DNA from: a virus
DNA: 40,053 nt
Direction: 5' to 3' (one strand)
Virus record (IMG/VR): IMGVR_UViG_3300044821_000065
Location: 1-40,053 of that record
A model generated the notes under the pieces. That model saw only the letters and a list, made by a program, of their open reading frames with translations, ran no database searches and was not told the origin of the DNA. A program made the translations under genes and the position numbers. Shown here one piece after another: positions 568 to 36,290 of the stretch. Each line of letters starts with the position of its first letter. The first letter of the stretch is position 1.

Positions 568-1215
568 ATGCGCAAAAAAAGATTTGGGATTGCCAAAATA
601 TATCAAAAGAAATCAGGAGTATACAGAATGAATAATCTTGTAACTAATGATTTCTACATAGGTTCGTCGGGGAATATATATAACCGGTATTATTCTCACT
701 GGAATATGTTAAAAGATGGAGATCATCCTAACTCTAAAATAAGAAATCATGCGCTATTGCATGGAAGAGATAGTTTTGATTTTCAAGTTCTTGAATATTG
801 CGACAAGCAACTAATGTATGATCGAGAACAATATTATTACGATACTTTAAGACCTACCTATAATGCTTGGACAAACGTGCGTAATGGAACTGGATTTAAG
901 CAATCTTTAGAATCGATTGAGAAATCTGTATCCAAAAGAAAAGGGCGAAAATTTGGCCGAGAGTTTCGTGACAAGCTAAAAGAAGCTTGGGCTAGAAGAA
1001 GAGAAATGCCTGGGTATAAAGATTCAATTAAACATTTAGATAAAACGGGCACTAAACATACTGCAGAATCTAAACTAAAAATGAGTCTAAGTGGAAAAGG
1101 AAGAGTTTTTACGGAAGAACATAAAGAAAAAATACGTAAATCCAGGTTGAATACCGAATGGGATTCTATAAACAATACATGGATTAAAAAGGGAGTAAAA
1201 AATGAGCGCATATAA
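568..1215 (+). CDS. GIY-YIG homing endonuclease with NUMOD3-type repeats (Seg-like)
   Basis: The protein (215 aa) is a predicted site-specific DNA endonuclease of the free-standing phage type. The N-terminal GIY-YIG domain shows GVY at residues 17-19 and YIG at 30-32. Arg40 and Glu87 are well placed as the catalytic Arg and metal-binding Glu. The C-terminal third has repeated basic segments of the NUMOD3 type (KHTAESKLKMSLSGK near residue 160, FTEEHKEKIRKSR near 180), which bind DNA in this family. The start is supported by AGGA seven bases upstream. It sits between two related fibre genes, 57 bases after one and overlapping the next by 14 bases, so its own 3' end carries the ribosome-binding site (GGGAG) of the next fibre. 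Its AT-rich codon use differs from the fibres and suggests acquisition. Confidence 0.9.
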   Translation: MRKKRFGIAKIYQKKSGVYRMNNLVTNDFYIGSSGNIYNRYYSHWNMLKDGDHPNSKIRNHALLHGRDSFDFQVLEYCDKQLMYDREQYYYDTLRPTYNAWTNVRNGTGFKQSLESIEKSVSKRKGRKFGREFRDKLKEAWARRREMPGYKDSIKHLDKTGTKHTAESKLKMSLSGKGRVFTEEHKEKIRKSRLNTEWDSINNTWIKKGVKNERI

Positions 1216-5979: not shown

Positions 5980-6653
5980 TATCTTTTCCTTTTGGTGTAT
6001 TCTTCGTCTACCTTTTTGATCTTACGTATCTGAGCCTGTGCCTGATGATAATATTCTCGTGGCAGATCAGCCAAGGTATCAATGCCATGCTTCTCCATGA
6101 TGTCCTTAGCTATAGCCTCATAGCCATCAAGTTCAATCAAGAGCTCTTGGTATTGGGTAGCATTGACTACATCATGGCGGTCTACTGCTTCTTTGCTTGG
6201 CTCTTTAGGCTTGCGTACCATCTCTATCAATCGTTCTTCTGCCTGTAAATCTCCATCATCATCAAAGTCAGGGCTGTTCTTAGAGGGGGCTATACCGAGT
6301 ATCATCTCCGCCTGACGCCTACGAATAGTTCTCTCGAGGTTGCCGGTGCTTCTCTCGCTGCTTGCTGATACGATGCGGGCACAAGATGAGATATACTGGT
6401 TGGAAGAGTGACCAAGGCTCGTCCATAAAAGACGAACGCCTGATCCTTCGTCTAACCTTTCAGTGCTCTGAAAGAAACCAAGACCATTTGACGCTAACGA
6501 TTCCCGTACGGCTTCTAATATAGCCTCAAGGTTGGCAAACTTGCCCCTGGGTCCTTCCTCGTTGGGTATAGGCTTCTTGTAGGTGCCTTGTGCCTTGGAT
6601 AGGGCTCCCATGATCTCACCAATCTCTGCACTTCTATAGTTATTTGCTTCCAC
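5979..6653 (-). CDS. ERF-like single-strand annealing protein (first of two)
   Basis: A 224-residue protein. Residues 12-130 resemble the ERF recombinase family: an N-terminal helix with ALSKAQGTYKKP, then GKFANLEAILEAVRESLASNGLGF, a hydrophobic strand with H-S-S (LGHSSNQYISS) and a short helix with RR-QAEMILGI. The C-terminal part is charged and helical, including LIELDGYEAIAKDIMEKHGI. ERF proteins anneal complementary single strands during phage recombination and replication. It starts at GTG, with AAGGA six bases upstream and a 14-base overlap with the preceding gene. A clearer ERF lies at 8990-9544 on the other strand. This copy lacks part of the usual core (a shorter middle), so its activity may be diverged. 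Confidence 0.7.
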   Translation of the reverse strand: MEANNYRSAEIGEIMGALSKAQGTYKKPIPNEEGPRGKFANLEAILEAVRESLASNGLGFFQSTERLDEGSGVRLLWTSLGHSSNQYISSCARIVSASSERSTGNLERTIRRRQAEMILGIAPSKNSPDFDDDGDLQAEERLIEMVRKPKEPSKEAVDRHDVVNATQYQELLIELDGYEAIAKDIMEKHGIDTLADLPREYYHQAQAQIRKIKKVDEEYTKRKR

Positions 6654-14159: not shown

Positions 14160-14165
14160 AGAATT

Positions 14166-14438
14166 ATGTATACCGAATGGATATGCTTTGCTGATGAATT
14201 TCCCAGAGAATTTTGCGGTTTAATAATAAAAATTAAACCTGAGCCTGGTGGTGAAAATTTATATAATATTACCGAAAATATGATTTTTTATGGACATCTT
14301 GAAGGAACATATATTTTTATTGAAGCAGAAATAGATGGGGAAAAAGTGAATAATTGCCTCTGGAAGGCGCAAAAAGAGTATGAATATCGTGAGATTTATT
14401 GGTACAATGCCGGTTACTCGAGGATTCAACCTCTCTAA
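14166..14438 (+). CDS. AT-rich inserted gene, unknown (90 aa)
   Basis: Begins MYTEWICFADEFPREFCGLI and continues through an acidic stretch to IYWYNAGYSRIQPL. The general pattern (W...D.FP, hydrophobic strand, Gly-containing loop) loosely recalls small phage proteins of the DUF551 kind, a weak comparison. Base composition is clearly richer in A and T than the neighbours and its ribosome-binding site is poor. It lies exactly between the intact endolysin and the relic of a second endolysin end, so it probably came in by recombination between related phages. Confidence 0.6.
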   Translation: MYTEWICFADEFPREFCGLIIKIKPEPGGENLYNITENMIFYGHLEGTYIFIEAEIDGEKVNNCLWKAQKEYEYREIYWYNAGYSRIQPL

Positions 14439-24683: not shown

Positions 24684-25223
24684 ATGATAACTACACCTAC
24701 AACGCTACCCGCTCCGGTTCAACAAACGTTTGATGACGTGCTCTTATCCGTAAGAACACCAAACCTGATTATGAAATTAGGTGCAGAATCAAAGCGTTTA
24801 CCGGCTAAAGGTGGCAGAACGTTACGAATGGCTCGCTATGATCGCTTACCAACAGCTCCAGTTCCACTTGGGCCCAGCGGTGCGACTCCTCCAGCGGTGC
24901 CATTAAATCGTGTCGATATCGATGCGACTATGAGTTTTTATGGAATGTATGTAGCAATCAACCAACAAGTTACCTTGCAGAACCAGGACCCTGTCCTTAA
25001 TGAAACTGCGGAACTTCTTGGATTATCGCTTCGTATGACTGAAGACCAATTGACTCGAGATATGTTGGCTTCAACAGCTAGCATCTACAACTGCACAGGC
25101 GGTGGTAATGGTGACCTTCCTACTAACTTAACTTTATCTGATATTGATGAAGTATCATCTGCGTTGTTAACAAACGATGCTTGGATGATCCTTGATGCAA
25201 TTGGCGGCGAAGATAAATTCGGT
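24684..25223 (+). CDS. Major capsid protein, exon 1
   Basis: The start at 24684 has GGGAG seven bases upstream. It encodes 180 residues beginning MITTPTTLPAPVQQTFDDVL, the usual N-terminus of P22/N4-gp56-type coat proteins, with AKGGRTLRMARYDRLPTAP and later LGLSLRMTEDQLTRDM. The exon ends ...GGEDKFG at 25223. Exon 2 continues TGPTRDAYLALGHT without a gap, giving a 314-residue protein of normal size for the family. If unspliced, the frame runs 24 codons into the intron and stops at 25295, giving a truncated coat. The product forms the icosahedral shell. Confidence 0.88.
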
Positions 25224-25424
25224 AAAATATGTGCCGAATTAAAACTTTCTCTGATTGACTTGGAAGTCCTTTGGGATGACAGGGCGCAAGCGTAAGCAGC
25301 GTGAACGACTAAGTGAGAAAGGCCCGAAAGGGTATGCGATAGTCTGAACTCTATGGAAACATAGAGAGGTGAATTCGAAGAGGTTTACCCGCCCAGCAAT
25401 GGGTCACAAAAGTAACAGAGAATG
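25224..25424 (+). ncRNA. Group I self-splicing intron in the major capsid gene (201 nt, no ORF)
   Basis: Several group I hallmarks agree. P1 is formed by exon ATTCGGT (25217-25223) with the guide GCCGAAT (25233-25239), placing a U-G pair at the 5' splice site. TGT (25230-25232) can pair with the first three exon 2 bases ACA (P10). P7 is GACTA (25307-25311) with TAGTC (25340-25344); P8 is GCCC GAAA GGGT (25322-25333). P9 is CTCTATG GAAA CATAGAG (25349-25366). The intron ends in G (25424), and removal joins the two coat halves in frame as DKFG-TGPTRD. It has no endonuclease and is small for the class. Confidence 0.9.
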
Positions 25425-25829
25425 ACAGGTCCAACCAGAGATGCGTACTTAGCTCTTGGCCACACCAAGCTTTCTAAGGATCTTAATAATATCAATGGAT
25501 TCATTTCTAAATGGAATTATCCCAATGATAATAAGGTCTTAAGATCTGAGTGGGGCTCTGTCAACAACGTGCGCTTTATGCTCTCTTCTGTTGCGTCAGT
25601 TTCACCTAACGCATCAGCCCTTGGTAACGACGTTTATAACGTTTTCGTCCAAGGGATGGAAGCATTAGCCTGCGTTGAGCAAGACAATTACTCAGCTCGC
25701 TTCTTATATCGTCCACCGGTTTACTCTGATCCATTGTTTCAGAACGTAACTATCGGCTATGTCTTCGCTGAAGTGCCACGGATCCTGAATGACCTTTGGA
25801 TCACCAACATGCGTTGTACGCTATTATAA
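25425..25829 (+). CDS. Major capsid protein, exon 2
   Basis: It continues the coat protein from the intron 3' splice site with 134 residues: TGPTRDAYLALGHTKLSKDL, then FISKWNYPNDNKVLRSEWGS, VRFMLSSVAS and YNVFVQGMEALACVEQDN, ending MRCTLL. The pattern (a DAYLALGH strand, RSEWGS, VRF, the VFVQGMEA strand) is typical of the C-terminal half of N4-gp56-like coat proteins. An ATG in the last intron codon could look like a start but has no ribosome-binding site. Exon 2 overlaps no other gene and is followed after ten bases by the next gene. Confidence 0.88.
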   Translation, partial: TGPTRDAYLALGHTKLSKDLNNINGFISKWNYPNDNKVLRSEWGSVNNVRFMLSSVASVSPNASALGNDVYNVFVQGMEALACVEQDNYSARFLYRPPVYSDPLFQNVTIGYVFAEVPRILNDLWITNMRCTLL

Positions 25830-35762: not shown

Positions 35763-36290
35763 TTATTTTTCGTCTTCTTTGTATTGATGTTCTTTCTTTA
35801 TGCGTTCTTGTATGGCTCGGTTGAGCCACATATTCATAGAGATATTTCGACGGGCAGCAAGAATCTTTATCTCTGTATGGAGCTCTTCGTTTACATCGAA
35901 AGCAAGTTGAGCCCTTCGAGAATTTTCTTCCTTTTTAGAAATTTCCTCCGGCGTCCTTTTTCTTGGTTTCCATCTTCCCTTGGCCATTTTATCATCAGAA
36001 TTGTCGCTGTGGCTCCCTAGAAATAAATGCTCTACTCTTATACACTTAGGGTTATCGCAAGAGTGGCATACAAGTTTTCCGTCTGGTATTTCACCTTTAA
36101 AAACTATCCAAGAAGCTCTGTGAGCCAGAAAAGATTTTCCGCATATTGTTGTAGAGCCATAGCCTTTTGATCCATTTCCGGCTATCCATTCTTGGCATCC
36201 ATTCGCAGGATTTATCCTGGAGTTCATATTGAGTTTTAGCATTAAAAACTCTCTTTTTTTTTCATCCAGTACTATTTTCTTAAACTTCAT
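35763..36290 (-). CDS. HNH homing endonuclease fused to a ribbon-helix-helix domain
   Basis: 175 residues. The first 108 are a HNH nuclease of the phage type: GYGSTTICGKSFLAHRASW with His57-Arg58, KLVCHSCDNPKC with His76 and Asn80, then EHLFLGSHSDNSDDKMAKGR with His88. The C-terminal 45 residues, AFDVNEELHTEIKILAARRN then ISMNMWLNRAIQERIKKE, are a ribbon-helix-helix of the Arc/CopG or HicB type. Fusion of these two is unusual. The RHH could target the nuclease or repress its gene; a palindrome lies in the promoter. AGGAG is four bases upstream of ATG. Confidence 0.85.
   Translation of the reverse strand: MKFKKIVLDEKKREFLMLKLNMNSRINPANGCQEWIAGNGSKGYGSTTICGKSFLAHRASWIVFKGEIPDGKLVCHSCDNPKCIRVEHLFLGSHSDNSDDKMAKGRWKPRKRTPEEISKKEENSRRAQLAFDVNEELHTEIKILAARRNISMNMWLNRAIQERIKKEHQYKEDEK

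What the first reader, a model, noticed from the sequence alone, without database searches (positions are those of the whole stretch)
25224..25424. Compact ORF-less group I intron splits the major capsid gene
Coat exons join exactly in frame (DKFG-TGPTRD). P1 with a U-G pair, P7, P8, P9 and a terminal G are all present. At 201 nt it is near the lower size limit for active group I introns and carries no endonuclease. Capsid genes are rarely split this way, and the intron could control coat timing, since unspliced RNA gives a truncated coat.
Basis: partly seen in the sequence, partly recalled or inferred. Interest (0 to 1): 0.85.

Follow-up and report, generated by a model that had tools for sequence, protein, structure and literature searches.

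The report
Tiny self-splicing intron in coat gene
A 201-base RNA that very probably cuts itself out sits inside this phage's coat-protein gene, and in related phages the same gene is riddled with up to five such introns at about thirty positions, so the coat gene of a common environmental phage lineage has become a refuge for self-splicing introns.

Summary
Confirmed and widened. Window 25224-25424 (201 nt) is a compact group I intron splitting the major head protein gene (phrog_1357, E 5e-22) exactly in frame. All core elements are present: P1 with U.G, P3-P9, P7/P3 pseudoknot, P10, terminal G. Twenty-eight aligned relatives show strong covariation. Uninterrupted relatives have up to 96% identical coats; 19 contig stretches carry the empty site. 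Rfam does not detect the family. Splicing is supported by L067, a contig 100% identical to L263 except that the predicted 201-nt intron, a close relative of the window's, is exactly missing; L067 looks RNA-derived, but its dataset type could not be verified.

The introns occupy about 30 coat positions, up to five per gene, and concentrate in coat genes (61 hits inside, 4 outside). The window copy is ORF-less; some alleles at its site carry ORFs. Timing control has no support. It is best seen as an endonuclease-free member of a mobile, coat-specialised intron family. Capsid introns and multi-intron capsid genes are known; the saturation and captured non-endonuclease genes (e.g. DUF551) are the new part.

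The parts
24684..25223 (+). Exon 1 of the major head (coat) protein gene, residues 1-180; the start codon at 24684 is inferred from relatives
   Evidence: Spliced protein matches phrog_1357 major head protein E 5e-22; uninterrupted relatives up to 96% aa identity; synonymous changes dominate
25216..25223 (+). 5' exon side of P1, AATTCGGT, ending in the U of the U.G pair
   Evidence: Sequence; U.G kept in 25 of 27 aligned introns
25224..25424 (+). Group I intron, 201 nt, no ORF
25230..25232 (+). UGU, intron side of P10 (pairs with 3' exon ACA 25425-25427)
   Evidence: P10 test over 66 introns
25233..25240 (+). Internal guide sequence GCCGAATT (3' side of P1)
25245..25251 (+). P3 5' strand (pairs 25315-25321)
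   Evidence: P3 93% paired, every pair with two-sided changes
25259..25302 (+). P4-P5-P6 domain: P4 25259-25262/25280-25283, P5 25266-25269/25274-25277, P6 25284-25287/25299-25302. In relatives ORFs sit in the P6 loop
25307..25311 (+). P7 5' strand GACTA (pairs 25340-25344)
   Evidence: P7 100% paired, last pair with 9 compensated sequences
25322..25333 (+). P8 GCCC-GAAA-GGGT
25349..25366 (+). P9 CTCTATG-GAAA-CATAGAG
25368..25403 (+). P9.1 (25368-25373/25384-25389) and P9.2 (25392-25394/25401-25403)
25424..25424 (+). Terminal (omega) G
   Evidence: an intron end in G was a condition of the junction search
25425..25829 (+). Exon 2 of the coat gene, residues 181-314 and stop
   Evidence: In frame with exon 1; 65 synonymous vs 6 nonsynonymous codon changes against L014

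Best explanation
The insert is a functional group I intron. In the coat mRNA it folds by P3-P9 into a ribozyme, an outside guanosine attacks after U25223, then G25424 is bound and the exons are joined, restoring the 314-aa coat protein (structure and boundaries shown; catalysis inferred). It belongs to a family of mobile group I introns that concentrates in phage coat genes. The window copy lacks an endonuclease or any other ORF. It persists because splicing makes it nearly neutral, and it can be spread together with the coat gene by recombination, with endonuclease supplied in trans or by past ORF-bearing versions (inferred).
For: Exact in-frame junction and full core. Over 28 introns 284 double-change cells vs 106 in shuffles; none of 500 shuffles reaches any of the five measures; slid structures far lower. 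P10 pairing 3.09 vs 0.99. Intron-less relatives with up to 96% identical coats and 19 contig stretches with the empty site. Contig L067 (2,394 nt) is 100.000% identical to L263 over 922+1472 nt with exactly the predicted 201-nt intron missing; L067 and the 86%-identical L064 from another dataset begin at the same base +-1, as transcripts would. That L263 intron is 79% identical to the window's, and the introns of the same site in L266 and L260 are the nearest rows by path to the window's core. Both coat exons change mostly synonymously. Site 180 is occupied in five other contigs, three with ORFs. Coat concentration: 61 profile hits inside, 4 outside in the portal-anchored sample.
Against: No Rfam group I match for this intron or for 13 loci holding relatives; Rfam's model can miss diverged introns. 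No RNA data for this phage itself. The RNA origin of L067 is inferred from its shape, not from a record: an intron-less DNA strain with no other difference in 2,394 nt would look the same. Mobility of this very copy is inferred from scattered occurrence.
Confidence: 0.92

Rival explanations
1. The intron is a regulatory switch: slow or conditional splicing delays coat synthesis, and the truncated 203-aa product of unspliced RNA has a role.
For: Unspliced RNA has an in-frame stop after 23 intron codons; coat must be made late and in large amounts (general knowledge).
Against: Relatives with nearly the same coat lack any intron at that site; different relatives use about 30 different positions; the intron differs in length and core lineage among occupants of the same site.
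Confidence: 0.06
2. No splicing: the coat is made as two polypeptides, the second starting at the ATG formed by the last three intron bases (25422), and the pieces assemble.
For: An ORF with ATG at 25422 is in frame with exon 2.
Against: Relatives have sites in codon phases 1 and 2 (10 of 28 sites) whose exons join only by splicing; P1/P10 pairing and core covariation would be pointless; L067/L263 shows exact removal.
Confidence: 0.02
3. Degenerate intron in a dying coat gene, or an assembly artefact.
For: Only one contig of this very phage is held.
Against: Intact core and both exons changing mostly synonymously; the same site is occupied by related introns in five other contigs.
Confidence: 0.02

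Closest known systems
Group I-type intron in the capsid gene of mycobacteriophage LittleE (Cluster J), and lactococcal phage Tuc2009 (PMC3706429)
   Same: Intron in the capsid gene; in LittleE U at the 5' exon end, G at the intron end, splicing shown by RT-PCR
   Different: LittleE's is 820 nt with a LAGLIDADG-like reading frame, single site, siphovirus; here 201 nt, no ORF, P22-like podovirus lineage with about 30 sites
Intron-rich major capsid gene of a crAss-like Zeta phage (OLRF01000054; PMC7886860)
   Same: Capsid gene cut into five pieces, three of the four inserts with group I intron type domains
   Different: There introns spread over many core genes of 145-192 kb genomes; here the family sits mostly in the coat gene of 36-40 kb genomes and often without endonuclease
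Compact group I introns of Jug phages (PMC12363816)
   Same: About 206 nt on average; splicing of 37 of 76 supported by metatranscriptome reads
   Different: About 18.5 per huge genome, in terL, nrdD, polymerase and other genes; relation by sequence not tested here
Faustovirus E12 capsid gene (PMC6247863)
   Same: Capsid gene as intron hotspot, 12 introns, five of them group I
   Different: Giant virus of amoebae, long introns, partly spliceosome-like
Podovirus ctn9Y15 (MW202674) and Roseobacter phage CRP-118 (OR420741)
   Same: Intron core 78-80% identical to the window's; P22-type coat gene in MW202674 and ribonucleotide reductase gene in OR420741 annotated as two pieces
   Different: Other coat family or other gene; the introns are not annotated there

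Membership tests
Group I self-splicing intron | P1 between 5' exon end and internal guide sequence with U.G at the splice site | tested here: met
   AATTCGGU/GCCGAATT; U.G in 25 of 27 aligned introns, P1 covaries with the exon
Group I self-splicing intron | P3/P7 pseudoknot with P8 between | tested here: met
   P3 93% and P7 100% paired in 28 sequences, compensated changes in both
Group I self-splicing intron | P4-P6 domain | tested here: met
   P4 100%, P6 98.8% of cells paired, P6 with two-sided changes
Group I self-splicing intron | P10 between guide sequence and 3' exon | tested here: met
   3.09 vs 0.99 contiguous pairs over 66 introns; window UGU/ACA
Group I self-splicing intron | Terminal G | tested here: met
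   G25424
Group I self-splicing intron | Match to the Rfam group I covariance model (a database criterion, not a defining property) | tested here: not met
   No hit at gathering score or E<=10; none in 13 loci with relatives
Group I self-splicing intron | Exons joined in RNA | tested here: inconclusive
   Supported for close relative L263 by RNA-like contig L067; not tested for the window itself, and the RNA origin is inferred
Group I self-splicing intron | Guanosine-dependent self-splicing in vitro | not testable with these tools
   Needs bench work
Mobile (homing) group I intron | Endonuclease gene inside the intron | tested here: not met
   No ORF of 45 aa or more in the window intron; alleles at site 180 in L126, L152, L219 carry small ORFs without a known endonuclease match; a LAGLIDADG endonuclease ORF occurs in another coat intron
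Mobile (homing) group I intron | Scattered presence with intron-less alleles | tested here: met

The most novel reading that the evidence does not exclude
Coat-gene introns of this phage lineage are not only endonuclease carriers but cargo platforms: their P6 loops capture ordinary small phage genes (a DUF551 protein, small cysteine-rich proteins), whose reading frames run on through the ribozyme core and stop just after it, so that cargo is expressed from the coat transcript and carried along by coat-gene recombination.
Probability: 0.35. Interest if true: 0.75.

Novelty: new variant of a known kind. Interest (0 to 1): 0.62.

Why it matters
It gives a tractable natural system for why self-splicing introns gather in highly expressed, conserved phage genes: about 30 insertion sites in a 0.94-kb gene, with occupied and empty alleles among close relatives. 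It bears on how introns change their target (guide sequence and core evolve apart), on how splicing keeps up with coat demand, and on annotation: coat genes split into up to six exons are read as fragments or missed, and Rfam does not flag these introns. Cargo without endonuclease would widen what group I introns are known to carry.

Tried and rejected
RNA model R1 was built with P4-P6 shifted by three columns through a typing error of mine and was not used; R2 is correct. Free-standing endonucleases of the window (GIY-YIG 568-1215, HNH 35763-36290) as source of mobility: no meaningful similarity to coat-intron ORFs. Host by genome contigs: three hits in bins of unrelated phyla, most likely stray phage contigs, so the host stays unknown. 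Near-identical intron-less copy of the window's own coat gene: none, best 81.5%. L250/L251 insertion of 211 nt: no hit of this intron family reported there, not followed. Terminal repeats of the 40,053-base record: none found. Junction calls with margin under 4 or P1 under 6 were not counted as sites; some apparent single introns of 800-1400 nt hide a tiny exon between two introns (for example L259/L288, where a finer search resolves sites 103 and 117). Literature searches for a coat gene with many group I introns in small podoviruses found none.

Full report
The coat gene reads ...GEDKFG up to 25223 and TGPTRD... from 25425; between them lie 201 bases ending in G. The joined protein of 314 aa matches phrog_1357, major head protein, E 5e-22, and a profile of relatives reaches solved major capsid proteins weakly (9e99, E 0.0003). 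Relatives in IMG/VR have the gene in one piece with up to 96% identical protein, and 19 contig stretches carry the uninterrupted target GATAARTTYGGTACHGGNCC. Codon changes against the nearest uninterrupted gene, L014, are 64 synonymous and 9 nonsynonymous in exon 1, 65 and 6 in exon 2, so both exons appear to be kept as one working protein.

Anatomy. P1 pairs exon AAUUCGGU with GCCGAAUU and puts a U.G pair at the splice site. P3 CUUUCUC/GAGAAAG and P7 GACUA/UAGUC form the pseudoknot; P4, P5, P6, P8, P9, P9.1, P9.2 are present, and P10 is UGU with exon ACA. The single strand folds with z -3.92. Twenty-eight compact introns of 196-253 nt from coat genes were aligned. With the structure named, 86.4% of cells pair against 67.5% in shuffles, 284 cells have changes on both sides against 106, covariation is 0.505 against 0.191, and sliding the partner by 1-3 columns gives at most 0.196. 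RNAalifold found 33 pairs, 30 with two-sided changes. P10, which the alignment did not use, pairs over 3.09 contiguous bases on average in 66 introns against 0.99 when exons are shuffled (maximum 1.53 in 500). This is a group I intron beyond reasonable doubt. P2 and P7.1/P7.2 were not seen; the subgroup is left open.

Splicing. L067, a contig of 2,394 nt from IMG dataset 3300016750, is identical without one mismatch to L263 (dataset 3300042090) over 922 and 1472 nt, and differs only by lacking the 201 bases that had been called as an intron at coat residue 260. L067 is short, starts 145 nt before the coat gene, and begins at the same base, within one, as L064, an 86% identical contig from another dataset. 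That is how assembled transcripts look. From memory these dataset numbers belong to metatranscriptomes, but no tool here confirms it, so this is strong yet not final evidence. The L263 intron is 79% identical to the window's; the introns at the same site in L266 and L260 are the nearest rows by path to the window's core in the tree, without starred support.

The wider picture. Scans by coat protein, by intron core and by portal protein brought about 280 loci. Junctions found by joined-protein score and P1 pairing fall at 28 coat positions under strict rules, plus residues 11, 299, 300 and 303 read by eye, about 30 in all; one or two of the 28 may be alignment shifts. Codon phases are 18 of phase 0, 3 of phase 1, 7 of phase 2. 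L287 has four introns, 454, 591, 748 and 594 nt, and five exons; L099 has four plus one after about residue 303. In the portal-anchored sample, which did not select for introns, 34 coat genes were complete, 14 in one piece and 20 split. In the same 925 kb the intron profile hits 61 times in the coat gene and 4 times elsewhere. In 40 whole virus records 24 had hits with R2, most within a few kb of each other. In the gene-neutral pattern scan 117 of 178 intron 3' halves lie in this coat family; of 71 flank fragments of the rest, 23 match major head family phrog_283 and 18 phrog_9953, with a few in ribonucleotide reductase and portal genes (family counts may overlap). The pattern was drawn from coat introns, so diverged relatives in other genes could be missed. 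Insertion sites lie in better conserved coat stretches (0.8345 against 0.7948, random at least as high in 0.18%), as expected of endonuclease targets.

How introns move. The six introns at site 180 (201, 209, 215, 382, 462, 567 nt) share the guide sequence but not one core lineage: in a tree of cores without P1 they scatter, while site 95 forms one clade and two introns of one coat gene, L100 at 51 and 168, are sisters (many inner branches are weak). Cores and targets thus seem to come apart, by retargeting within the gene or by exchange of cores between introns. Some coat introns hold LAGLIDADG frames (L158, PF00961 E 2.7e-11). Others hold 65-151 aa ORFs in the P6 loop that read on through the ribozyme core (tails QPERLSEKTPKGDAIV or QPERSKRED...MRCSEHCGNTVRDK). 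One is DUF551 above Pfam's cut-off (37.7 against 22 bits), alike to ORFs outside coat introns in L215, L216 and L229; another (L250 at 143) is alike to an ORF upstream of the coat gene in L100 (3e-12) and to window 14160-14435 (3.7e-5). So introns seem to have captured ordinary small phage genes. Whether these are expressed is not known.

Known or new. Capsid introns are known in LittleE and Tuc2009 (PMC3706429), a crAss-like capsid gene with four inserts in PMC7886860, introns of about 206 nt with metatranscriptome-supported splicing in Jug phages (PMC12363816), and a 12-intron capsid gene in Faustovirus (PMC6247863). The window intron alone is a new member of that kind. The saturation of one coat gene in small podoviruses, the concentration in coat genes, and the captured cargo were not found in the papers held, a library that lacks most subscription journals.

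Noticed in passing
L100, L152, L250, L129, L126, L219 coat introns (for example L100 site 78): Small non-endonuclease ORFs in the intron P6 loop, fused in frame to a tail coded by the ribozyme core; one is DUF551, one resembles window 14160-14435.
   Followed up: partly
window 568-1215 (+): Free-standing GIY-YIG homing endonuclease (phrog_314 E 9.5e-19) between two tail-fibre-like reading frames.
   Followed up: partly
window 35763-36290 (-): Free-standing HNH endonuclease with an Arc-like C-terminal part (phrog_1872 E 4.1e-26, phrog_3180 E 3e-6).
   Followed up: partly
L003 (MW202674) 5995-6213 and L002 (OR420741) 5995-6396: GenBank phages whose P22-type coat gene and ribonucleotide reductase gene are annotated as two pieces around the same intron family, not annotated as introns.
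   Followed up: partly
L263 6220-6434, L266 and L267 9872-10087: Introns of this family next to the start of the portal gene match.
   Followed up: no
L064 and L067 base 1: Contigs of two datasets start at the same homologous base about 145 nt before the coat gene: a likely transcript start or processing site.
   Followed up: partly
L126, L219, L084, L100 introns: A second subtype with a different P7 sequence (about AGCA/UGCU instead of GACUA/UAGUC), read by eye.
   Followed up: no
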